Below the pieces are notes generated by a model. That model had not been told where the DNA came from. It did no database searches and worked only from the letters and a program-made list of their open reading frames with translations. This document shows positions 6,661-61,484 of a stretch of DNA of 64,000 nt, piece by piece. Position 1 is the stretch's first letter. Each line of letters begins with the position of its first letter. The position numbers were made by a program, and so were the translations under genes. Source of the stretch: Diploptera punctata (lineage: Eukaryota > Arthropoda > Insecta > Blattodea > Blaberidae); the NCBI GenBank assembly GCA_030220185.1, contig JASPKZ010002338.1:248001-312000 (forward strand), in the 5' to 3' direction.

Positions 6661-6977
6661 ACACTTTTTCAACAAACGTTAGTTTCAGTCTTTTTTTTTT
6701 AATGGAGACTTAATATTGCCTCAAACTATGTGGTTTGAGTCAAAATATGCCTATATTTGTAAAACTAAATTTTATTCTATCAAAAGCTATATGATGATTG
6801 GAGACCGGATGTTAAAAGGAATGCCTTTTTTTTCATCACATATCAATATTGCACGGTTTCAATCTTCCTTTCCCCCATTTTTTAGTGTGTTCCCTTTTCT
6901 GCAACAATTTCGTTATTATTCCTCTTTTAGCAATGTACTGTATTAGAAAACATTCAATAATTTTTATTTAGGATATG
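6661..6977. other. Unassigned AT-rich stretch
   Basis: Nothing recognised. The last 13 bases (6965-6977) are the left target-site duplication of the following SINE-H copy. Confidence 0.5.
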
Positions 6978-7340
6978 TCCACAGCTGTGGTCTCGAGTTA
7001 GCGTGCTGCCTTGTCACGCAGAGGGCCCGGGTTCGATCCCCGGTCGGGACAGTTTTTCTGGGTGAGGTTTTTATCGGGGTTTTTCCTCACCTGTAAGACA
7101 AATGTCAGGAAAACTTTAAGGCCCAAACGGTCCCCGAAATCATATGGCCATCATCATCATCATCATCATCATTCACATTCATATTCATCTTAGATTAAGC
7201 TTAGGATTAAGGACTCTCCTGGCGCACCGCTATCATCATCATCACCCACGGGGCAATGTAACCCCGCCTTCCAGGCGCCCCAACCTCAGAAGTGGGTTAC
7301 AAGTACACCAGGAACGTCGAAGGGGCATTTGAAAAAAAAA
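6978..7340 (+). mobile_element. SINE-H copy, tail type 2, with 13-bp target-site duplication
   Basis: The head has A box TGGTCTCGAG and B box GGTTCGATCCCC. The body is shared with the other SINE-H copies up to CATATGGCCATCATCATC. The 3' half is different: ACTCTCCTGGCGCACC, CCGCCTTCCAGGCGCC, GGGGCATTTG, then poly-A. It is flanked by TATTTAGGATATG at 6965-6977 and 7341-7353. The same 3' half occurs on SINE-J. Confidence 0.92.
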
Positions 7341-11528: not shown

Positions 11529-12203
11529 AAGTACATAGTAGAGGATCTTTCATTTCGCAGTTGACAGGACATGGCTGTATAGAGCATAGGACTCCAGTCG
11601 CAATGTCTCCTTATCAAATGATATAAGGCCTAAGATAAGTTGATGAGAGACGCCGTGTAGATGAGAAATGCCACTGAGCAAGTGCAGGTTTTTTAAACCT
11701 CGCTGTCTGAAGGCCAAATGGGATTACTCAAAAAAAAAAATACTTCCAGTACAGTTACAAATGGTGACAGCGCTAATGAAAAAGGCCAAATTGGTTAATT
11801 AAATATTGTTTGTGTATCTTTTACCACGTGACTTTCTGCTAACAGACATTTGAGAATTCAGTTCCCGGGACTGACACAATTTTCCTGACAAGGGAACTGT
11901 CAACCGTTACATGCCACCAAATCTACCTTGAAATTTCTTCCAGAGAAGCGTTGTGATGTACAAAGGTTGTGTTAAAAAAATCTGCCTTTTTAACTGCAAG
12001 GCACTAAAATCCAGCGCCAAATTTCTAATTTAAAGTATAGGGAAAGTAAGATTGAATAATTCTCACTACCAGCCGTCCGCGCCACGTCCCAGCGCGCAAA
12101 GCCGGAGATCTTGAGTTCAAAACTCGGTTTAGGCATGCATTTCTCTCTTCAGTTGTATTAACAATTGCACGCGGATTACATTAATTTCAATAATACATTC
12201 CCG
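11529..12203. other. Mostly unassigned; weak SINE head
   Basis: A GAGTTCAAAACTC motif near 12112 resembles a B box next to GC-richer sequence (12066-12105), possibly an eroded SINE. Otherwise nothing recognised. Confidence 0.35.
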
Positions 12204-14311: not shown

Positions 14312-14469
14312 GTTATAACATATAAATATACAAGCGTTACTGCTATAAAGTAAATATTCTCTTTAAAAATTTGCTTACCTGTTATGCTGGCAACTAGATG
14401 TCAGTTGGAACGACTTCCCGCTACCTCTTGTATGAATTGAGAATACTACATATGTAAGAAAAATGTATG
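13681..14469. other. Unassigned, with upstream part of a tRNA-cassette repeat at its right end
   Basis: 13681-14330 shows nothing recognisable except an (AT)n run at 14287-14312. 14344-14469 is homologous to 52275-52409 (CTCTTTAA..TTTGCTTAC.TGTTAT, ACTAGATG.CAG), the region upstream of a tRNA-like cassette. Confidence 0.5.
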
Positions 14470-14483
14470 TTTCTGTTGGAATA

Positions 14484-14557
14484 CTTGAGTAGCTCAGTTG
14501 GTTAGAGCGCTAAACGTACAGAGTTTAGAGACTCGGGTTCAAATCCCGCGACTCAAG
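14484..14557 (+). tRNA. tRNA-like cassette TLC-1 (probable pseudo-tRNA or mobile cassette)
   Basis: A 74-nt cloverleaf. Acceptor CTTGAGT pairs 7/7 with ACTCAAG. The D arm is GCTCAGTTGGTTAGAGC. The anticodon stem TAAAC/GTTTA has a 7-nt loop GTACAGA (anticodon position ACA), and the T arm is CGGG-TTCAAAT-CCCG. It is preceded by the 14-nt leader TTTCTGTTGGAATA and AAGAAAAATGTATG, and followed by CATTCATTTTTCTT, which pairs with that flank. The anticodon is not one normally used by insect tRNAs, so a working tRNA is doubtful. Confidence 0.5.
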
Positions 14558-14630
14558 CATTCATTTTTCTTTTGATATCATTATATATGTCATATTGTCG
14601 AATTTCGCGGATATAAGCATGAATAAGAAA

Positions 14631-14772
14631 GTTTTCTTGGGTTTTTCGCATCATGGATTCAAGGTTGGCCTCTGGCCACTGATCCCTACGTTTCGACATG
14701 ATTCCATGTGCCATTATCATTCCTTATCCAGAAGCCAACCTCGAATCTATGACGCGAAAAACCCAAGAAAAC
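14631..14772. mobile_element. Inverted-repeat element, possibly Penelope-like
   Basis: Two 45-bp arms (14631-14675 and 14728-14772) match with 4 transitions. The 52-bp loop contains ACGTTTCGACATGATTCCATGT. Its complement has a small stem followed by CGAAACG, recalling the hammerhead-bearing modules at 37.8 and 50.9 kb, but the CUGAUGA core is degraded. It is flanked by (AT)n. Confidence 0.45.
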
Positions 14773-14779
14773 TGTCTTA

Positions 14780-14822
14780 ATTATATATATATATATATAA
14801 TTATATATATATATATACATAT
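14780..14822. repeat. (AT)n microsatellite
   Basis: Alternating AT run interrupted by TAATTATA. Confidence 0.9.
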
Positions 14823-14832
14823 ATACACAGGA

Positions 14833-15138
14833 TGTCCACGCTTGGTCTCGAGGTAGCTTGCTGCCTTGTCACGCAGCGGGCCCGTGTTCGATCCCCGGTC
14901 GGGGCAGTTTTTCTGGGTGATGTTTTATCGGGGTTTTTCCTCACCTGTAAGACACATGTCAGGAAAACTTTAAGGCCCAAACGGTCCCCGAAATCATATG
15001 GCTATCATCATCATCAGCAGCAGCAGCAACAGGAAGCTAACACACCTACAATTCCCTAGTAAAGCTGCAAGCATAGCATGAAAGTGCTATGATTGCAGCG
15101 AAGGACGTGGTTTCGGGCAGAATTACTATGGATGGATA
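14833..15138 (+). mobile_element. SINE-H copy, tail type 1
   Basis: Head GTCCACGCTTGGTCTCGAGG and B box GTTCGATCCCC. The tail has hairpin CATAGCAT-GAAA-GTGCTATG (one G.U pair) and ends CAGAATTACTATGGATGGAT. It contains a GCA/ACA run in place of the usual ATC run. Confidence 0.9.
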
Positions 15139-23800: not shown

Positions 23801-24337
23801 GTTTGTATTTATTGTTGGTGGCATAGAATCCCCGAATAGTTAATGATCTTCTAGTTTCCAATATACATTAAGTAGTTCTGTAACTGAAGTTCTGGATGTT
23901 TCGTGTTACTGCAGTCTGGTGGAATGTGCTATTTTTCCTGTTATGTAATTTTCATAAGTCACGCACGGACAGCGCCTGAAGATGCAGTCCATGTGAGTGA
24001 CTCGCACGGCCTGCTTGATAAGTGTATCAGGCAGGGCCCGCTTTAATGCTTCCGGACATAACGCTGCGAAGTTCGCTATATAACATTCCAGATCCAAACA
24101 TGGTGAATATTCAAGAAATTGTAGAGTCAACCATTTTATTTCCTACTTGTGCCATTTGATAAAAATCGTAGGTCCTTATGTCCACAGTCCCATGGGCCTT
24201 TATAATTCGTTAATGACAACTTTTAAATATAAACTTTCCTTGTTTCTTTTTATGATAGTCTTTATGTTATTTTCTTTGCATGGCCTAGATACTAAAGAGG
24301 AATAAATAATATCAAAGAATATTTTAAGATAAAAAAT
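23801..24337 (-). other. Unassigned; contains a 74-residue unrecognised frame
   Basis: A GC-richer patch holds a minus-strand frame (24130-23906) beginning MTLQFLEYSPCLDLECYIAN and containing a CPEALKRALPDTLIKQ helix-like stretch and several Cys. I do not recognise the family. It may be a fragment of a transposon protein or chance. The rest is AT-rich without features. Confidence 0.25.
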
Positions 24338-24390
24338 TATAAGCTCAGATTGGGGTTTGAACCCAGGACCTACTGTCGAGTTTAAATTCA
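24338..24390 (-). other. Half tRNA-like cassette (3' half), inverted relative to TLC-2
   Basis: The minus strand reads GGTCCTGGGTTCAAACCCCA, then ATCTGAGCTTATAATTTTTT, matching the T arm, acceptor strand and T-rich end of the cassette at 24508-24578 in opposite orientation. The 5' half is missing. Confidence 0.5.
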
Positions 24391-24507
24391 CAATAAATGT
24401 CTTCTTAAACAAGAAGCCGCCATTTGCATGATCGAACATATGCTCATAGCATTCGGCGATCGGAATTCACAGTGTGTAAGAGAAAAAATTGCGTTTAGTT
24501 TGGAGTT

Positions 24508-24578
24508 TCTCAGGTAGCTTAGTGGTAGAGCATTGGCCTAGAAAGCTAAAAGTCCTGGGTTCAAACCGCAGTCTGAGC
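24508..24578 (+). tRNA. tRNA-like cassette TLC-2
   Basis: 71 nt. Acceptor TCTCAGG pairs 6/7 with TCTGAGC. The D arm is GCTTAGTGGTAGAGC. The anticodon stem TTGGC/GCTAA has loop CTAGAAA, and the T arm is CTGGG-TTCAAAC-CGCAG. The leader TTTAGTTTGGAGTT is 14 nt. The flank AAAAAATTGCG on the left pairs with CGTATAATTTTTT on the right. The body sequence differs from TLC-1 while the layout is the same. Confidence 0.5.
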
Positions 24579-24641
24579 GTATAATTTTTTTTCGAATATA
24601 ATTTATCCTTCAGTGCGAAGTGTTGAATTAATAATAAAACA

Positions 24642-25426: not shown

Positions 25427-26244
25427 AACATACGCTAATATAATCTTTGATTGACGTCATTTTTGATGTAACAATGTACCATTTTCTAAATCACGCTAAT
25501 ACGTATTTAAGAAATCTAAATTAGAAGTGTAAATATTATTTAGAAATGAGAGGGAAATATGAGACATTCTAAAAAAAAAAAAATAGACATTTTGGTCCAT
25601 AAACGCGCCTATTAAGAACTAGAATGCATGAAAGAGGATAATTCAAAATGTACACTCAGTTGTAATTATTTTTGCGGACAAATTGTTTATTTCAGTTTTG
25701 TTTACGATTGAATTATTAATTACCTTAAACAAATATGAATGAACTGTTCTGAAACTAACAACTGTGTCAACGAACCGGTAATTACTGTGACTATTGCCAA
25801 CATTATATAACCGGAAGTTTGCCATTCAAGGTCATCTGTATGACATCTATTTGTGAAAATGTTTTCATGTACCGTCAGTACACACTCAACTGTTATTTCG
25901 TCACCTAGCAACCTTTCAAAACACTTGCTATTGTTTCCCTTTCTTTACTTGTTTTGCATATGCACTTAGATAAATACTTATCTATTTACATCCTGGCTTC
26001 TTATAGAGCGGAAGTGTTTTATCACGTACTGATATTACAAGTCTAGCAACTACGACTTTACTCTCGTCAATGAACTTAAAAGGTCATTGCTTCAAACACA
26101 ACCTGCATTGGAACGACACAAACACAGGCCATGTTTGTATAGTTGTTTAATAGTTATTTAGATGATTAGTTACAAAAACAGAGGTTTAGAAACCAACTTA
26201 GAACTAGACCGAAGGGAGCGCAGCAAGTAAAATAAAACCTAATT
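25427..26244. other. Unassigned AT-rich stretch
   Basis: No repeat family or protein recognised. Confidence 0.45.
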
Positions 26245-27114
26245 TTGTTATGTGTTGTAGAGAATGAGGAAGGCTTACAACTGAATGGTATTAATAAGCT
26301 GTTAGTTTATGCTGATGATGTAGTATTGTTGGCCGATAGTGAGGAGATACTAAAGGACAATACGCACACACTATTGAGTAACACTAAGAAATTAGGACTG
26401 GAAGTAAATATCAATAAAACTAAATATATGGTCACACGTAGAAATACATTGTATAATGGAAATGGACAGCTAATGACAAATGAGGGAAATTTTGAGGAAG
26501 TGGCTGAATTCAAATACCTAGGAACAATAATCACAAATAGGAATGAGATGCACAAAGAAATTAAACATAGGCTCAATTCTGGAAATGCGTGCTATTATGC
26601 ATTGCAGAGACTATTGATGTCCCAACTCCTTTCAAAAAACGTTAAACTGAAAATATATAAAACTATTATTCTACCAGTTATACTATATGGGGGCGAAACA
26701 TGGACTCTTACTTTAAGGGAGGAAAGGAGATTACAAGTATTTGAGAATAAAGTACTTAGGACAATTTTTGGACCAAAGAGAGATGAACAGACAGGTGAAT
26801 GGAGAAGACTACATAACAATGAACTACATGGTCTTTATAGGAAGCCAGATATAATAAGAACAGTTAAGTCTCGGAGACTGCGAAGGGCAGGACATGTTGC
26901 ACGTATGGGGAATGAAAGACGTGCATGGAAGCTTCTTGTAGGAAAGCCAGAGGGAAAACGTCCAGTAGGTAGACCAAGAATGAGGTGGGAGAATAACACT
27001 AACTATGATTTGAGGGAATTAGATTATACAGGGAATGATTGGAAAACATTAGCTCAGGGTAGGGATGTATGGAGATCTTATTTCTGCGCGGCCATGAACC
27101 TACGGGTTCGATAG
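26245..27114 (+). pseudogene. LINE-A reverse transcriptase, C-terminal 289 residues, open frame
   Basis: The best preserved coding stretch in the window. LINE-A sequence begins at about 26259 (ENEEGLQLNGINKL). The RT palm motif LLVYADDVVLLADSEE lies near residue 20, GLEVNINKTKYMVTRR near 50, and FEEVAEFKYLGTIIT near 78. IYKTIILPVILYGGETWTL is followed by the C-terminal LRRAGHVARMGNERRAWKLL, GRPRMRWENNTNYDLREL and AAMNLRVR, then stop. No frameshift is present. It lacks the endonuclease and the first half of the RT, so it cannot be active by itself. The first 5 or so codons come from flanking DNA. Confidence 0.9.
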
Positions 27115-28018: not shown

Positions 28019-28320
28019 AAAGTAAAGTGATCCCACAACAGGCCCGGAGGCCCTTGGGGTAGTAGGAAGTTAACGCGCCCACTTTTTCTAGACAATCGGC
28101 ACTTTACGTCAGCCGGGTTGTCAGCCCTGCGTGACGGCCGCCTTTACCCCCAGAACAAGCGTCTGGTACTCATTTCCATTAGAGGCTGAGTCGACCCCAG
28201 GGCCATAGTGCCGCCAGAGGGTTTGGGTCAGTTTAAAAATCCTGACCCCAACGAGACTTGAACCCTCGACCCTCCGGCTTGTAGCTCAGTGCCTTAACCA
28301 CTACGCTACGGCGTGCCCCC
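28019..28320 (-). mobile_element. SINE-K copy with 13-bp target-site duplication
   Basis: Full-length reverse copy, 302 bp, flanked by GAAGAAAAATATA at 28006-28018 and 28321-28333. The head (B box GGGTTCAAGTC on the minus strand) lies at the right. It is nearly identical to 19164-19466. Confidence 0.95.
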
Positions 28321-28436
28321 GAAGAAAAATATACGAAGTTTAAAATGGAAATTCATCAGTCAATATGTAAATAAAAAGTACGTGTTCAATCCCATCCATT
28401 GTACTTCTTTCTGAATTCACCCATTTTCTGATTTTC

Positions 28437-30342: not shown

Positions 30343-30660
30343 AAAATATTTGTTTTGTCTCAGAAAGAAAAATTTGTGATTCTGATCGTATTTTTTCTCC
30401 TGAATTCAAATATGATATCGGTTTTCTCCATCACGCAGGCATTTATAATTTCAAACACTTTAATATTTTCTACATTCGTAACTATACAATATTTGAACAT
30501 TTGGACTCACCTAGAAACTAAGAAATGAAGATTTTCTGCTATATTTCGCCTGTGGAGCATCCCTCTTGATGGTCCAACAATAATCGGTCAGCATATTAGG
30601 ATTCCATTTGCCTTGATATCTCTTTTCCATAGCTGAAATCTCCTGAGTTAGCTCATTTAG
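30343..30660 (-). repeat. Repeat T, copy 1, with an exon-like C-terminal coding end
   Basis: A 318-bp duplicate of 46113-46410. On the minus strand it encodes ELTQEISAMEKRYQGKWNPN, MLTDYCWTIKRDAPQAKYSR, KSSFLSF, stop, which is also readable in the other copy. The motif of a hydrophobic start, YCWTIKRD and a basic tail resembles C-terminal exons of insect transposon-related proteins, but I cannot name the family. A tRNA-like cassette abuts the right end. Confidence 0.6.
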
Positions 30661-30663
30661 GAT

Positions 30664-30734
30664 GCCTGGATAGCAGAGCGGATAACGCACTAACATATAG
30701 AGTTAGAGGTCCCGGGTTTAAATCTCATTCAGGA
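30664..30734 (+). tRNA. tRNA-like cassette TLC-3
   Basis: 71 nt. Acceptor GCCTGGA pairs 6/7 with TTCAGGA (one G.U). The anticodon stem CTAAC/GTTAG has loop ATATAGA, and the B-box region is GGGTTTAAATC. The T stem is poorly paired. The last 8 leader bases are TTTAGGAT. It is followed by ATATACTTTTTTTCTTTT. Confidence 0.45.
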
Positions 30735-30754
30735 ATATACTTTTTTTCTTTTCA

Positions 30755-37829: not shown

Positions 37830-37876
37830 TTAACTGGAGCGCTTTCGGAAGTTAACTTCCATCATCAGCAGGTTAA
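37830..37876 (-). ncRNA. Hammerhead-ribozyme-like motif
   Basis: On the minus strand the order is stem I strand TTAACCTG, core CTGATGA (37868-37862), one extra T, stem II GGAAGTTAACTTCC, GAAA, minimal stem III GCGC, TC, then CAGTTAA pairing with stem I (7 bp with one bulge). The extra T between core and stem II and the tiny stem III depart from the textbook form, though very short stem III is known for dimer-acting versions. Confidence 0.55.
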
Positions 37877-37954
37877 ACTTCTGCTACTCGTTGTTGTTGC
37901 TGCTACAAACAGTTGGAGTATACATAATCGTGAACAACAACGAGTAACAGAAGC

Positions 37955-38001
37955 TTAATCTGCTGATGATGGAAGTTAACTTCCGAAAGCGCTCCAGTTA
38001 A
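37955..38001 (+). ncRNA. Hammerhead-ribozyme-like motif
   Basis: TTAATCTG / CTGATGA (37963-37969) / T / GGAAGTTAACTTCC / GAAA (37985-37988) / GCGC / TC / CAGTTAA. Stem I pairs 7 bp with one bulged base. Predicted cleavage is after C at 37994. It is the mirror copy of 37830-37876 and differs in two stem I or bulge bases. Confidence 0.55.
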
Positions 38002-51934: not shown

Positions 51935-52001
51935 TATGTTATAATTAAATGTTTAACATTGAGCAATGCAAGCTTAATATGGTATGATAAGAAAAATAAA
52001 T

Positions 52002-52070
52002 GCCGGGACGGGATTCGAATCCGGATCTTTGAGTCTGTATCTCAGCGTGATATCCATTACACTACCAGGC
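52002..52070 (-). tRNA. tRNA-like cassette TLC-4
   Basis: Acceptor GCCTGG pairs with CCCGGC (one G.U). The D region is TAGTGTAATGGATATCACG, like tRNA-Val. The anticodon stem is CTGAG/CTCAA (4 of 5) with loop ATACAGA, and the T arm has GATTCGAATCC. The leader TTTGAATTGGATTC and the AAGAAAAATAAG flank lie on the 5' side. Confidence 0.5.
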
Positions 52071-52149
52071 GAATCCAATTCAAACACTTATTTTTCTTAT
52101 ATATGTATTATATTCTCCATTATTACTAGATGTCGCGAGAACTGGATTC

Positions 52150-52204: not shown

Positions 52205-52423
52205 ATTTTATTTTTCTTATCATACCATATTAAGCTTGCATTGCTCAATGTTAAACATTTAATTATAACATCTATAAAGCTAATAGATAAAAATATTCTC
52301 TTTAATTTGCTTACTTGTTATAGTCAGCTACTAGATGGCAGTGAAGACCGAGTTCTCGCGACATCTAGTAATAATGGAGAGTATAATACATATATAAGAA
52401 AAATAAATGTTTGAATTGGATTC

Positions 52424-52492
52424 GCCTGGTGGTGTAATGCATATCACGCTGAGGTACAGACTCAGAGATCCGGGTTCGAATCCTGTCCAGGC
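52424..52492 (+). tRNA. tRNA-like cassette TLC-6
   Basis: Acceptor GCCTGG/CCAGGC is perfect (6 bp). The anticodon stem CTGAG/CTCAG has loop GTACAGA, and the T loop is TTCGAAT. The leader TTTGAATTGGATTC is exactly 14 nt. The flanking inverted repeat ATAAGAAAAATAAATG (52394-52409) pairs with CATTTATTTTTCTTAT (52492-52507). It is the clearest member of the family. Confidence 0.55.
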
Positions 52493-52526
52493 ATTTATTT
52501 TTCTTATCATACCATATATATATATA

Positions 52527-52855
52527 GAGTAATTCTGCCCGAAGAAAAAGTCCTTCACTGCAATCGTAGTACCCCCATGCTATGCTTGCAGGTTTACTAG
52601 GGAATTGTAGGTGTGGTAGCTTCCCGTTGCTTTTCACACCGGTGAAGGATGATGATGATGATAATGATAAGGATGATGATGATGGCCATATGATTTCGGG
52701 GACCGTTTGGGTCTCAAAGTTTTCCTGACATTTGTCTTACAGGCGAGGAAAAACCCCGATAAAAAGCTCACCAAGAAAAACTGCCCCGACCGGGGATCGA
52801 ACCCGGGCCCGCTGCATGAGAAGGCAGTACGCTACCTCGAGACCACAGCGGTGGA
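52527..52855 (-). mobile_element. SINE-H copy, tail type 1
   Basis: Full-length reverse copy. The tail at the left has mutations in the CTGCC hairpin (CTGCCCGAAGAAAAAG complement). The head at the right has intact A and B boxes. It sits in an AT-rich context next to the TLC cluster. Confidence 0.9.
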
Positions 52856-52899
52856 CTTATATATAAATAAGGATGAACAATAAGTGTTTGTCCTGAAAT

Positions 52900-52972
52900 G
52901 TCTGAGTGGACAAGTTGGTATATCACTAACATACAAAATTAGGGGTCTCTCCGTTGAAATCCCGGTTCAGGC
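52900..52972 (+). tRNA. tRNA-like cassette TLC-7
   Basis: Acceptor GTCTGAG pairs 7/7 with TTCAGGC, counting G.U pairs. The anticodon stem CTAAC/ATTAG has loop ATACAAA. The B-box region is GTTGAAATCCC. It is preceded by a TTTGTCCTGAAAT leader and followed by GTTTATTTTTGTTTT. Confidence 0.45.
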
Positions 52973-53172
52973 GTTTATTTTTGTTTTAATCTTTTTTATA
53001 TATATATATATTTGAAACAGTATATGCTGTTTAAAAGAGCCTCTAACTTCTCACCGTAGCAATTTGGTGAACAAAAATAGTCAAAAATAGTTACCAACTT
53101 TTAACCGTAGCAACTTCGTTAACGAAATAAGAGCTGAAAATTTACCTGTAGAAACTTGGACAAAAACAAAAA

Positions 53173-53820: not shown

Positions 53821-54158
53821 TCACCGCTGTGGTCTTGAGGTAGCGTGCTGCCTTGTCACGCAGCGGGCCCGGGTTCAATCCCCGGTCGGGGCAGTTTTTC
53901 TGGGTGAGGTTTTTATCCGGGGTTTTCCTCAACTGTAAGACAAATGTCAGGAAATCTTTAAGGCCCAAACGGTCCCCGAAATCATATGACCATCATCCTT
54001 ATCATTATCATCAACATTATCATCCTTCACCGGTGTGGAAAGCAACGGGAAGCTACCACACCTACACAATTCCCTAGTAAAGATGCAAGCATATCATGAA
54101 AATGCTATGATTGCAGTGAAGGACCTGCCTTCGGGCAGAATTACTATGGATGGATGAT
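53821..54158 (+). mobile_element. SINE-H copy, tail type 1
   Basis: Full length. Head TCACCGCTGTGGTCTTGAGG, B box GTTCAATCCCC. Hairpin CTGCC-TTCG-GGCAG is intact. The CATAGCAT hairpin has one mismatch. Confidence 0.92.
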
Positions 54159-54582: not shown

Positions 54583-56480
54583 ACTAACTCACTGGCACTA
54601 ACGAACTCGTAGGTTCATGGCCGCGCGGACATAAGCTCTCCATACATCCCTATCCTTAGCTAATGCTTTCCAATCATTCCCTGTATAATCTACTTCCCTC
54701 AAATCATAGTTAATGTTGTTCTCCCACCTCATTCTTGGTCTACCAACTGGGCGTTTTCCCTCTGGCTTTCCTACAAGAAGCTTCCATGCACGTCTTTCAT
54801 TCCCCATACGCGCAACATGTCCTGCCCATCCCAGTCTACGAGACTTAACTGTTCTTATTATATCTGGTTTCCTATAAAGACCATGTAGTTCATTGTTATG
54901 TAGTCTTCTCAATTCACCTGTCTGTTCATCTATCTTTGGTTCAAACATTTTCGTAAGAACTTTATTCTCAAATATTCGTAATCTCCTTTCCTCTCTTAAA
55001 GTAAGAGTCCATGTTTCGCACCCATATAATATAACTGGTAGAATAATGTTTTATAGGCTATATTTTCAGTTTAACGTTTTTTGAAAGGAGTTGGGACATC
55101 AAGAGTCTCTGTAATGCATAATAGCATGCATTTCAGAATTGAGCCTATGTTTAATTTCTTTGCGCATCTCATTCCTATTTGTGATCATTGTTCCTAGGTA
55201 TTTGAATTCTGCCACTTCCTCAAAATTTCCCTCATTTGTCATTAGCTGTCCATTTCCATTATATAATGAATTTCTACGTGTGACCATATATTTAGTTTTA
55301 CTGATATTTACTTCCAGTCCTAATTTCTTAGTGTTACTCAATAGTGTGTGCGTGTTGGCCTTTAGTATCTCTTCGCTATCGGCCAGTAGTACTACATCAT
55401 CAGCATAAACTAACAGCTTATTAATACCATTCAGTTGTAAGCCTTCCTCATTCTCTAAAGATTTAATGGCATGCTCTAGTACAAAATTAAATAGTAGAGG
55501 AGATAGTGCATCTCCTTGCTTCAACCCATTCTGGATTTCAAAAGTGTCCGAAAACTGTTTGCCTACACGCACCCTACTCTTTGTGCCGTTTAGAATTATT
55601 CGTATAAGTCTAACTAACTTTTTAAGAATTCCGAACTCCAGCAGGATACTATATAACTTCTCCCTCTTAATTGAATCATATGCTTTTTTGAAGTCTACAT
55701 ACAGTTGATGTACAGTACCATTATATTCCCATTTCTTTTCTAAAATCTGTCTTATACTAAAAATCTGATCTGTTGTAGACCTGTTTCTTCTAAATGCACA
55801 TTGATGATCTCCTAGAATGTCATCAATATAGGGAGTAAGTCTGCTTACTAATATATTTGTTGGAATTTTGTACGAAGTTGAAAGTAATGAGATGCCCCTG
55901 TAGTTGTTGCGATCAATTTTATCTCCTTTCTTATAAATTGGTACGATATAATTGACTCCTTCCATTCATCTGGAAGAGCTTCTTTTTCCCAAATCATACT
56001 AAGCAACCAGCGTATCTTGTCCATCAATTTTTCTCCCCCTGATTTTATTAGTTCTGCTGGGATCTCATCTGAACCTGATGCTTTATACATCTTCAATTTT
56101 TCAATCGCCATTTCAACCTCTAATGCACTTGGCTCTGCGACTAGCATTTATGCTGTATGTAAATTATCCTCCTCAATGTCCTGTTCTGTATGTATATTTA
56201 ATAGCTGATTAAAGTAACTTTTCCATCTATTTAGTATACTCCTGGAATCTGCAATCATATCCCCATTTTGATTCCGAATTATGTTTGTTCTAGCCTGAAA
56301 CCCTTTCTTCTCTATACTAATTCCCTGATATAATTCTCTAATTCATTTCAAGATCATTAATCTTCTCTCTCAAATATTCCCTCTTTTTACTCTTTAGAAG
56401 CCTGGTGGTTTCCCGTCTAATACTACCCAATTGCTCTGAATTTACCTCATTTTGTAACCTATTAAGTTGTATTCGTACTG
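54583..56480 (-). mobile_element. LINE-A, longest copy in the window (about 1.9 kb)
   Basis: Covers on the minus strand the RT N-terminal linker (RNQNGDMIADSRSILNRWKS, YFNQLLNIH), the whole RT domain, the C-terminal region and the 3' end with tail (AGTT). The terminal hairpin has one broken pair. It has at least three frame breaks (near 56155, 55950 and 55105). The endonuclease domain is absent: 5' truncated at about 56480. Confidence 0.95.
55099..56210 (-). pseudogene. LINE-A reverse transcriptase, nearly complete RT domain
   Basis: Upstream part (56147-55848): EPSALEVEMAIEKLKMYKAS and SDEIPAELIKSGGEKLM. After a frameshift near 55950 the 288-residue frame (55965-55099) carries VPIYKKGDKIDRNNYRGISL, HQCAFRRNRSTTDQI, LYVDFKKAYDSIKREKLYSI (first catalytic Asp), GLKQGDALSPLLFNFVLEHA, LLVYADDVVLLADSEE (catalytic YADD), GLEVNISKTKYMVTRR and FEEVAEFKYLGTMIT. 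A 1-bp loss near 55132 then ends it. The motif order is that of non-LTR RTs. Clade unsure: RTE-like by C-terminus and tandem-repeat tail. Confidence 0.9.
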
Positions 56481-57001: not shown

Positions 57002-57323
57002 GTCCACCGCTGTGGTCTCGAGGTAGCGTGATGCCTTCTTACGCAGCGGGCTCGGGTTCGATCCCCGGTCGGGAGTTTTTCTGGGTGAGGTTTTTATCCA
57101 GGCCTCACCTGTAAGATAAATGTCAGGAAAACTTTAAGGCCCAAACGGTCTCCGAAATCATATGGTCATCATCATCATCCTTATCATCATTCTTCACCGG
57201 TGTGGAAAGCAACGGGAAGCTACCACACCTACAGTTCCTTAGTAAAGTTGGAAAGTATAGCATGGTAATGCTATGATTGCAGTGAAAGACCTGCCCTCAG
57301 GCAGAATTACTATGGATGGATGG
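57002..57323 (+). mobile_element. SINE-H copy, tail type 1, with 11-bp target-site duplication
   Basis: AACTACAACAG flanks it at 56991-57001 and 57324-57334. Full-length copy with head GTCCACCGCTGTGGTCTCGAGG, A and B boxes, both tail hairpins (CATGGTAATG loop variant, CTGCC-CTCA-GGCAG) and end (TGGA)n. Confidence 0.95.
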
Positions 57324-59146: not shown

Positions 59147-59925
59147 AACATTCTTCTTCTTGTTCCGAATGCAGTATTGGGTGAAGATGCCCGCTCTGCG
59201 ACTACAAAAACTGATCTTTCCATCGGTTGAAGGGTCTTCCGAGGTCTCTTTTGCCTTTAGGGTTGAGGTGGTAAATCATCTTTGGTAAACGGGAATTTGA
59301 CATTCTCTGGACGTGTTGGAACCATTTAATCTGATAATTTTGTATATGTTCAACCATTTCCCTACTATTCCACTGCACCCTTATGTCATCACTTTTCATT
59401 CTATCCCTTAATGTTACTCCAGTTAGTGATCGGAGGAATCTCATTTGTGAACTATTAATGCGGGATTTATCTTTTGCTCGAAGTGTCCAGCATTCACTTC
59501 CGTATAGTAGAGCAGGTTTGGCTATGGCATTATGAAATCTCAATTGGATTTCTTTCCTCATTTGTTTTCCAAAATTTCTCCTAATTACACCATTTAATCT
59601 GTTATATTTTTCTAAATTTGTTTCCACATCTTTTTGATTATGAAACTGTGATATATTATTACCTAAATAATTAAAGTGTGTTACTTGTTCTATTGGTTTA
59701 TTATTTAATATTATTTTTACTCTCGAAAGTCCCTTTCCAGTGATTGCCATGAATTTGGTTTTATTTTCAGATATTTTCATGTTGTATTTTTCAAGGGTAT
59801 TCTGCAATTTAAACACTGATCTCTGCAAATCATCTTCATTCTCCGCTAGAAGTACTTGATCATCTGCGAAGATTATAATAATTATTGTTTGTATTTGGTT
59901 TCCTCTACATATTTTTACTCCTGGG
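59147..59925 (-). mobile_element. LINE-S copy, 5' truncated
   Basis: Carries the frame at 59202-59828 plus upstream IIIIFADDQVLLAENEDDLQ to about 59880, i.e. the catalytic box in FADD form. The 3' end has a short UTR and a (GAA)n tail (plus-strand CTTCTTCTTG at 59151). Confidence 0.85.
59202..59828 (-). pseudogene. LINE-S reverse transcriptase C-terminal region, open 208-codon frame
   Basis: Open frame reading KYNMKISENKTKFMAITGKG, INPKGKRDL-type end: RVKIILNNKPIEQVTHFNYL, VIRRNFGKQMRKEIQLRFHN, IAKPALLYGSECWTLRAKDK, SQMRFLRSLTGVTLRDRMKS, WFQHVQRMSNSRLPKMIYHL, RDLGRPFNRWKDQFL. It follows the FADDQVLLAENEDD box in the same frame upstream. It is typical of the second half of an RTE-like RT. The frame is intact but lacks endonuclease and RT fingers. 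Confidence 0.88.
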
Positions 59926-60445
59926 GGTTAAGTTTTTTCCACTATAAACAAACACTGATTTTTATATATAAGATACATGCAGGGAATGTTAACTGAGTTT
60001 GGCATCAAATGACATATATATAGAGTAGTGAAGTTCATTCTGCAATAGTTGGGAAATGTTTGTGCACGGAGTTGGTGACACCGTGGCAGGGTCTGACAAT
60101 GAATGTTGGACATAAAGTGATATAAAGAGCAGGATGCTGGATAAAGCACGGGTCGGAACGTCTCCAGGAAGACAGACTTGCCTGTGGCTGGAACAGGGCG
60201 ACGATCTGTTCAAGGTCAGCAGAGGTGAGCACTGACCTCCCGGCAGACAACCGTCCAGTACAACTTAACTCAAAATGTCCCCCTCCCCCTTCTTAAGTGT
60301 TACGCTCCGATTAAAATATACCCACTTTCTCATATATTTATTAGGTCCGGTGATAGTAATTATATTAGGTAACTATGACAACCAGCAATCGACATTCTAG
60401 AAGCAACTGAACAAAATATTTTAATAGTCATATTCTATTCCAATC

Positions 60446-60944: not shown

Positions 60945-61440
60945 TAGATTAGTTTTTTTAAGTGTATATTTTTATTTTGCTTTCAACAAGAAAATGGTCA
61001 CTATCAATTTCACTTCCTCTGTATACTCTAGTATCATTTACAGACTTTTTAAATGTATTATTAATTAGTACATAATCTATTATAGACTTTGATCCCCTTG
61101 CTGCCCATGTATATTTGTGTATTTTCTTGTGTCTAAAGAAGGAGTTTGTGATTCTTAAATTATTGAATATGCAAAAATCTATTAGCAGTTTACCATTATT
61201 GTTGCAAGTTGGTTCTCCTTCTGATCCAATGCATTCTCTTATCGGTTGATTTCCGACTCTTGCATTAAAATCACCAGCAATTATGAGATAATCTTGTTTA
61301 TTTACTTTGTCAATGGTTTCTTGTAAAATATCATAAAATTCTATGGTTTCTGAATCGTTTCCTTCTACAGGGGCATAAATTCCAATTATATTCAAATTAT
61401 GTCCTAAAATTTTTATTCTAACTGCTCTAAAATACGAAAG
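60945..61440 (-). mobile_element. LINE endonuclease-domain fragment
   Basis: Isolated 5' region of an RTE-type LINE, without an RT nearby in the same orientation. The frame continues upstream of the first Met to about 61435 (RAVRIKILGHNLNIIGIYAP). Confidence 0.8.
60958..61395 (-). pseudogene. APE-like endonuclease of an RTE-type LINE, 145 codons
   Basis: Contains NIIGIYAPVEGNDSETIEFY, YLIIAGDFNARVGNQPIREC (GDFN metal-site motif), NGKLLIDFCIFNNLRITNSF, KYTWAARGSKSIIDYVLIN (T.W..SIIDYVL motif) and GSEIDSDHFLVESKIKI (SDH catalytic His). These are the middle to C-terminal motifs of the exonuclease-endonuclease-phosphatase fold that nicks target DNA. The N-terminal motif is missing. The frame is open but ends at a stop at 60958 before any RT. 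Confidence 0.9.
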
Positions 61441-61484
61441 TGAAATTTGGATTTTAAATAAAAGAAACTCTCATAAACTTCAAG

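What the first reader, a model, noticed from the sequence alone, without database searches (positions are those of the whole stretch)
52394..52507. A tRNA-like cassette family: different tRNA-like bodies in one fixed frame
Seven cassettes occur (14484, 24508, 30664, 52002-, 52150, 52424, 52900). In the four best copies (14484, 24508, 52002- and 52424) a 14-nt leader (TTTnnnTTGGAnT type) lies between an A-rich flank (AAGAAAAATAAATG type) and the acceptor. The 3' acceptor strand is followed at once by the T-rich complement of that flank (CATTTATTTTTCTT type). The tRNA-like bodies differ in acceptor, D and T arms, yet each keeps 6-7 acceptor pairs. Five of the seven have loops of the form RTAYARA. 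A single SINE that simply decayed would not keep pairing with different sequences. This suggests a cassette that is exchanged or reinvented inside a mobile frame, possibly an RNA polymerase III unit with a built-in T-run end.
Basis: partly seen in the sequence, partly recalled or inferred. Interest (0 to 1): 0.78.

Follow-up and report, generated by a model that had tools for sequence, protein, structure and literature searches.

The report
tRNA-like gene family, cockroach-like DNA
Several related tRNA-shaped DNA units appear to share start and stop signals for RNA polymerase III, but their paired stems differ in a compensating way, which looks more like a small family of tRNA-derived RNA genes than one decaying repeat.

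Summary
Seven related cassettes are in the window; a covariance model built from four recovers the other three, two of them independent copies. The host looks like a cockroach or termite relative. The "frame" reads as RNA polymerase III anatomy: an AT-rich box near -31/-24 in the full-frame copies, a predicted start 11 nt before the A box (a purine in 7 of 7) and a T-run terminator. Copies 14484 and 52424 are homologous over about 290 bp. On the structure-based alignment 9 of 19 stem pairs differ on both sides yet pair in both copies; unconstrained change at the flanks' divergence gives a mean of 0.19 and a maximum of 4 in 20000 runs. Stems are less alike than flanks (78%): 45% on the structural alignment (p 1e-4), 58-60% on a sequence-optimised one (p 0.015-0.026); whole bodies do not differ significantly (p 0.1). 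The shared anticodon loop and the lack of a close canonical tRNA parent favour one founder over swapping. I read it as a tRNA-derived Pol III gene family of the 4.5SI kind, spread by DNA duplication. Expression and genome-wide copy number are unknown; the genome search did not complete.

The parts
14312..14605 (+). Unit copy 1: upstream DNA, promoter, leader, tRNA-like body, T-run; homologous to 52250-52540 (right end approximate)
   Evidence: Local alignment, score 230; upstream part alone 61 against a shuffle maximum of 21
14456..14482 (+). A-rich flank and leader of copy 14484; predicted start at 14479
14484..14558 (+). tRNA-like body, called Cys(aca); 20 of 21 hand-set pairs
14559..14576 (+). 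T-rich tail / terminator
24326..24413 (-). Partial inverted copy of the 3' half of 24508
   Evidence: 90.5% over 42 bp; 25.4 bits, E 0.0012
24479..24507 (+). A-rich flank and leader of copy 24508; predicted start at 24504
24508..24579 (+). tRNA-like body, called Ser(aga); 19 of 21 hand-set pairs; T-rich tail follows to about 24594
30657..30752 (+). Copy without the A-rich flank, between two unrelated repeats; predicted start at 30660
   Evidence: Left repeat ends at 30658; 97.7 bits, a training copy
51984..52099 (-). Copy 52002-: flank, leader, body (52000-52071) and T-run; 15 of 21 hand-set pairs
   Evidence: 94.6% to 52424 over 167 bp; Rfam tRNA 32.1 bits
52139..52223 (+). Copy 52150: inverted duplicate of 52002- without the A-rich flank, internal deletion
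52250..52540 (+). Unit copy 2, the reported site with its upstream DNA (ends approximate)
52388..52395 (+). AT-rich ACATATAT at predicted -31/-24
52396..52422 (+). A-rich flank and leader; predicted start at 52419
52423..52493 (+). tRNA-like body, called Cys(aca); 18 of 21 hand-set pairs
52494..52508 (+). T-rich tail / terminator
52870..52990 (+). Copy 52900: frame kept, T stem poor; 17 of 21 hand-set pairs; held out of the model, 43.4 bits

Best explanation
A small tRNA-derived family of RNA polymerase III units. Each full unit has an AT-rich box at about -31/-24, a start at a purine 11 nt before the A box, a cloverleaf-capable body with A and B boxes, and a T-run beginning about 80-86 nt after the start. 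Units multiplied by DNA duplication that carried upstream DNA (14484 and 52424), by tandem copying, and once by a fold-back inversion (52002-/52150); 30664 may be a reverse-transcribed copy. The paired stems changed largely by compensating changes, so the fold was kept in the better copies while its letters were rewritten. Shown from sequence: homology, spacing, pairing and compensation. Inferred: transcription, the start site, selection on the fold.
For: All 7 cassettes are found by one model, two independent ones held out. Purine at the predicted start in 7 of 7; first T5 at +80 to +86 in six and +67 in the deleted copy. The upstream DNA of 14484 and 52424 aligns far above 300 shuffles (61 against at most 21). 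9 of 19 pairs changed on both sides and paired in both, against a mean of 0.19 and a maximum of 4 in 20000 unconstrained runs at 0.12 change per lineage, and a maximum of 7 at 0.30. Over 7 copies 82.9% of cells pair, 15 of 19 pairs have a change on both sides, covariation score 0.534 against 0.299, each reached by 0 of 500 shuffles; further pair types by 16 of 500. Anticodon loop RTAYARA in 6 of 7.
Against: No expression data. Predicted transcripts of 14484, 24508, 52424 and 52002- do not fold best as a cloverleaf (0 of 4) and have z-scores of -1.96, 0.32, -1.05 and 1.25. Keeping 18 or more pairs in both copies is not surprising at the flanks' divergence (P 0.34 and 0.07 at 0.10 and 0.15 per lineage). 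Whole-body identity (46/69) is not significantly below the flanks (p 0.1), and the stem deficit falls to p 0.015-0.026 on a sequence-optimised alignment. 52002-, 30664 and 52900 have 15-17 of 21 pairs. The alignment behind searches was fitted to the structure and holds three related rows. 24508 and 52900 show no clear upstream homology to 14484 or 52424.
Confidence: 0.5

Rival explanations
1. An old tRNA-only SINE with several subfamilies: each copy is a member of a different subfamily whose source gene kept a folding head, so heads differ while most still pair.
For: Many independent copies in 64 kb would be common if the family were abundant; 30664 begins near the predicted start and ends in a T-run between unrelated repeats. 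Cockroach SINEs start 11 nt before the A box (PMC9191728, abstract and passages).
Against: 14484 and 52424 share about 145 bp upstream of the A-rich flank, outside any transcript from the predicted start. No body or tail after the T-run; the unit is far below the 150-bp limit used for cockroach SINEs.
Confidence: 0.27
2. Cassette exchange: bodies are swapped into the frame by gene conversion with other tRNA-like genes.
For: Stems of 14484 are nearer to 24508 than to 52424 on hand-set pairs (0.55 against 0.33) although frames are nearer to 52424 (24/32 against 17/32).
Against: The anticodon loop is shared (7/7 between 14484 and 52424) and the arms align. The D-arm region is uniform among tRNAs; no whole body exceeds 0.69 identity to a recalled tRNA. 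On the model alignment 14484 shares about as many pairs with 52424 (8) as with 24508 (7).
Confidence: 0.12
3. Template switching during replication repairs the arms of hairpins, so pairing and compensating changes arise by mutation without selection on an RNA.
For: The mechanism makes multibase compensatory changes and reverse-complement arms (PMC8794818, abstract and opening text). The locus holds fold-back duplicates: 52002-/52150, with a 5-nt overlap at 52139-52143, and a partial inverted copy beside 24508.
Against: One switch copies one arm and leaves the other ancestral; many pairs here differ on both sides across several helices.
Confidence: 0.08
4. [quoted passage not shown]
Against: No second direct copy lies within 1 kb of 14484 or 24508; 52150 and 52424 are direct neighbours but their upstream sequences differ. 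End duplications were only looked for by eye.
Confidence: 0.03

Closest known systems
4.5SI RNA genes of mouse-like rodents (PMC10137851 and PMC7279448, passages)
   Same: tRNA-derived, short (98 nt), type 2 promoter with A and B boxes, TATA-like box at -31/-24, T-run; three genes 4-40 kb apart in mouse and rat
   Different: Rodent RNA is expressed and of one sequence type; here expression is unknown and bodies differ strongly. No sequence relation was tested.
German cockroach tRNA-derived SINEs Sbg1-Sbg9 (PMC9191728, abstract and passages)
   Same: tRNA-derived head in a cockroach, start 11 nt before the A box
   Different: Those are at least 150 bp with a body and tail; here only the tRNA-like part. 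Their consensus sequences are in a supplement I could not open, so identity with one of the heads is not excluded.
Helenus TRIM elements (PMC10886601, abstract, passages, section 3.3)
   Same: tRNA-like sequence with a Pol III promoter inside a repeat frame
   Different: No paired LTRs seen here

Membership tests
tRNA-derived Pol III gene family (4.5SI kind) | A and B boxes, start and T-run at Pol III spacing | tested here: met
   7 of 7 copies have a purine 11 nt before the A box and a T5 run at +67 to +86; A-box matches were chosen by eye; 52150 has a partial deletion around the B box
tRNA-derived Pol III gene family (4.5SI kind) | AT-rich or TATA-like box at -31/-24 | tested here: inconclusive
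   ACATATGT, TGTGTAAG, ACATATAT, ACATATAT, AAATAAGG in five full-frame copies; ATAGCTGA and TCTCCATT in the two truncated ones; function not testable
tRNA-derived Pol III gene family (4.5SI kind) | Stable RNA is made | not testable with these tools
   No RNA data
SINE (criteria of PMC9191728) | Length of at least 150 bp with head, body and tail | tested here: not met
   T-run begins at +67 to +86 and no shared body follows except a short AT-rich stretch and the 52-kb duplicates
SINE | Target-site duplications and many dispersed copies | not tested
   The genome search unanswered; duplications only looked for by eye
Functional cytosolic tRNA gene | Intact cloverleaf with an anticodon used in translation | tested here: inconclusive
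   ARAGORN calls Cys(aca), Ser(aga), Cys(aca); that ACA is not a usual Cys anticodon is recalled, and isotype was not tested
Inverted-repeat DNA transposon (MITE) ending at AAGAAAAAT | Homology between copies ends at the inverted repeats | tested here: not met
   14484 and 52424 stay homologous for about 145 bp further upstream
Helenus TRIM | Two direct LTRs around a short internal part | tested here: not met
   No direct second copy within 1 kb of 14484 or 24508; 52150 and 52424 do not share upstream sequence
Helenus TRIM | Primer-binding site, polypurine tract, 4-bp duplication | not tested
   Not searched with a tool

The most novel reading that the evidence does not exclude
A lineage-specific family of working tRNA-like small RNAs in which the anticodon loop (RTAYARA) and the Pol III frame are held fixed while stem after stem is rewritten by compensating changes or replacement, as fast as or faster than the flanking DNA; the 5' flank and 3' tail may also form a long alternative hairpin that competes with the cloverleaf.
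Probability: 0.13. Interest if true: 0.7.

Novelty: new variant of a known kind. Interest (0 to 1): 0.4.

Why it matters
If the stems really turn over this fast while the fold is kept, the family would be a compact natural case for separating selection on RNA shape from hairpin repair by template switching and from gene conversion. It would also show how such units come to be called Cys or Ser tRNA genes in insect genomes.

Tried and rejected
One decaying SINE: not compatible with 9 of 19 doubly changed, still paired pairs between 14484 and 52424. Inverted-repeat transposon ending at the A-rich flank: homology continues upstream. Helenus LTR: no LTR pair seen. Coevolution of flank/leader with the copy's own 3' side: full length, own is the best 3' partner in 4 of 5 copies but the best 5' partner in only 3 of 5, two of these ties; leader only, own is best in 1 of 5; flank only, best or tied in 3 of 5; so not shown. 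The plus strand pairs better than the minus strand in 5 of 5, but copies are not independent. Against 4000 of 6661 composition-matched window pairs, the own energy is reached by 30, 18, 11 and 77 for 14484, 24508, 52424 and 52900 (52002- left out as a duplicate; the cassettes were not removed from the background). Outside copies: the leader pattern gave 22 stretches in genome contigs and 5 in viral contigs; 7 of these 27 loci hold a tRNA, the nearest 807 bp from the match, so I read them as chance. A body pattern in viral contigs gave 0. No collection of insect genomes could be searched. Literature: eight answered searches listed no paper on this family; supplements could not be opened. An earlier hand count of stem identity (20/42, typed into) was wrong and is withdrawn; one search replaces it with 23-24 of 40. 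The odds of the novel case were lowered from 0.15 to 0.13 and interest from 0.42 to 0.40 for that reason.

Full report
What is there. The window is eukaryotic and repeat-rich. A reverse transcriptase frame at 55099-55965 (minus) has 5786 hits, of which the best 120 were listed: first an unnamed protein at 90%, and among the named ones Cryptotermes secundus, Periplaneta americana and Blattella germanica. The host is therefore probably a cockroach or termite relative. ARAGORN reports three tRNA-like genes (14484 Cys aca, 24507 Ser aga, 52423 Cys aca) and Rfam adds 52000-52071 minus. Of the three not used in training, 14484 and 52900 are independent. At E <= 10 there are 41 matches; those between 1e-6 and 0.01 are 28227-28328 minus (another tRNA-headed repeat of the window, by its sequence), 24326-24413 minus (a partial inverted copy) and 12046-12152 (doubtful).

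Independence. 52002-, 52150 and 52424 are one group: 52002- is 94.6% identical to 52424 over 167 bp and 52150 is its inverted neighbour. Sequence matching the promoter of 52002- runs to 52143 and sequence matching the leader begins at 52139, a 5-nt overlap that fits a fold-back. At most five bodies are independent.

The frame. German cockroach SINEs are reported to start 11 bp before the A box (PMC9191728, abstract and passages). By that rule the start is a purine in 7 of 7 copies, and a run of five T begins at +80 to +86 in six and at +67 in the deleted copy. Rodent 4.5SI and 4.5SH genes carry a TATA-like box at -31/-24 (PMC10137851 and PMC7279448, passages). Here that place reads ACATATGT, TGTGTAAG, ACATATAT, ACATATAT and AAATAAGG in the five full-frame copies. 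The two copies without the A-rich flank begin close to the predicted start: 30664, with its left repeat ending at 30658 and start at 30660; 52150, with its junction at 52139-52143 and start at 52145. This is inference from spacing; no RNA was examined.

Homology beyond the transcript. 14484 and 52424 align over about 290 bp. The DNA upstream of the A-rich flank alone scores 61 against at most 21 in 300 shuffles. Reverse transcription of an RNA from the predicted start would not carry it, so DNA duplication is the better source for these two. 24508 and 52900 show no such homology to 14484 or 52424; one weak score, 52002- against 52900 (2 of 300 shuffles), pairs two tRNA-like stretches.

The bodies. 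Identity of 14484 and 52424, gaps left out, is 109/140 upstream, 21/27 in flank and leader, 46/69 in the body and 16/20 in the tail. Upstream plus flank and leader is 130/167. On the model alignment, stems are 17/38, loops 23/31 and the anticodon loop 7/7; stems against flanks p 1e-4. On a sequence-optimised alignment, stem sites are 23-24 of 40 and p is 0.015-0.026, or 0.011-0.083 for sites in stems of both copies; the whole body against flanks is not significant (p 0.1). The stem deficit is therefore real but its size depends on the alignment. The stronger sign is compensation. On the model alignment, for which 14484 was held out of training, 8 of 19 pairs are identical, 1 differs on one side, 9 differ on both sides and pair in both, and 1 is unpaired in one copy. 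Unconstrained change at 0.12 per lineage (78% identity) gives 0.19 such double changes on average and at most 4 in 20000 runs; at 0.30 per lineage at most 7. The other nine comparisons of the five independent copies give 2 to 6 double changes and 4 to 8 pairs broken in one or both, so compensation goes with some decay. The hand-set structures give 11 of 21 double changes for 14484 and 52424, with a one-base slip of the acceptor register. Over all seven copies, 82.9% of cells pair against 70.2% shuffled, and the covariation score is 0.534 against 0.299 (0 of 500 each); that alignment is fitted to the structure and holds related rows. Merely keeping 18 pairs would not be surprising at the flanks' divergence (P 0.34 and 0.07 at 0.10 and 0.15). 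Stem identity is below loop identity in 10 of 10 comparisons (p < 0.05 in 3), but below the leader-plus-tail frame in only 8 of 10.

One founder or many. The anticodon loop is RTAYARA in 6 of 7 and its arm aligns. D-arm positions resemble Ile, Cys and Val in three bodies, but this is the most uniform part of tRNAs. I prefer one founder; exchange stays open.

The inverted flanks. The A-rich flank plus leader pairs with the T-arm/acceptor 3' side and T-run better than shuffles in four copies and weakly in 52900. Full cassettes fold with z-scores of -2.63, -2.66, -2.79, -6.31 and -2.65, against 0.20 for 30664 without the frame; predicted transcripts alone give -1.96, 0.32, -1.05 and 1.25 for four copies, and none of these four best folds is a cloverleaf. 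The 52424 hairpin uses the acceptor 3' strand and would exclude the cloverleaf. Tests of own against cross pairing are mixed, so coevolution is not shown. Template switching can make and repair such arms without function (PMC8794818, abstract and opening text).

Verdict. The best reading is a tRNA-derived Pol III family comparable in layout to the 4.5SI genes. The main missing facts are the genome-wide count, since genome search was unanswered sixteen times, and any RNA evidence.

Noticed in passing
52690-52870, also 408-588, 6964-7143, 53822-53985, 14834-14997, 57002-57161 and others: A separate tRNA-headed SINE-like repeat with about ten matching places in the window, 73-92% alike.
   Followed up: no
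24326-24413 (-): Partial inverted copy of the 3' half of the 24508 cassette, about 100 bp away from it: a second inverted pair besides 52002-/52150.
   Followed up: partly
12046-12152: Weak match to the family model (22 bits, E 0.009), mainly in the T arm and tail; may be a decayed copy or chance.
   Followed up: no
37846-37985: Long near-perfect hairpin that scores 53 bits with Rfam MIR7526, far below its gathering score of 110; probably an inverted-repeat element.
   Followed up: no
14611-14790: Inverted-repeat element right after the 14484 unit (arms about 65 bp, 85% alike).
   Followed up: no
52327-52339 and 14394-14405: CTAGATG(G/T)CAGT in the shared upstream DNA resembles, from memory, a CTCF-type motif; not tested.
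   Followed up: no
26236-27114, 55099-55965 (-), 59202-59927 (-), 60958-61470 (-): LINE remnants with reverse transcriptase or endonuclease domains.
   Followed up: partly
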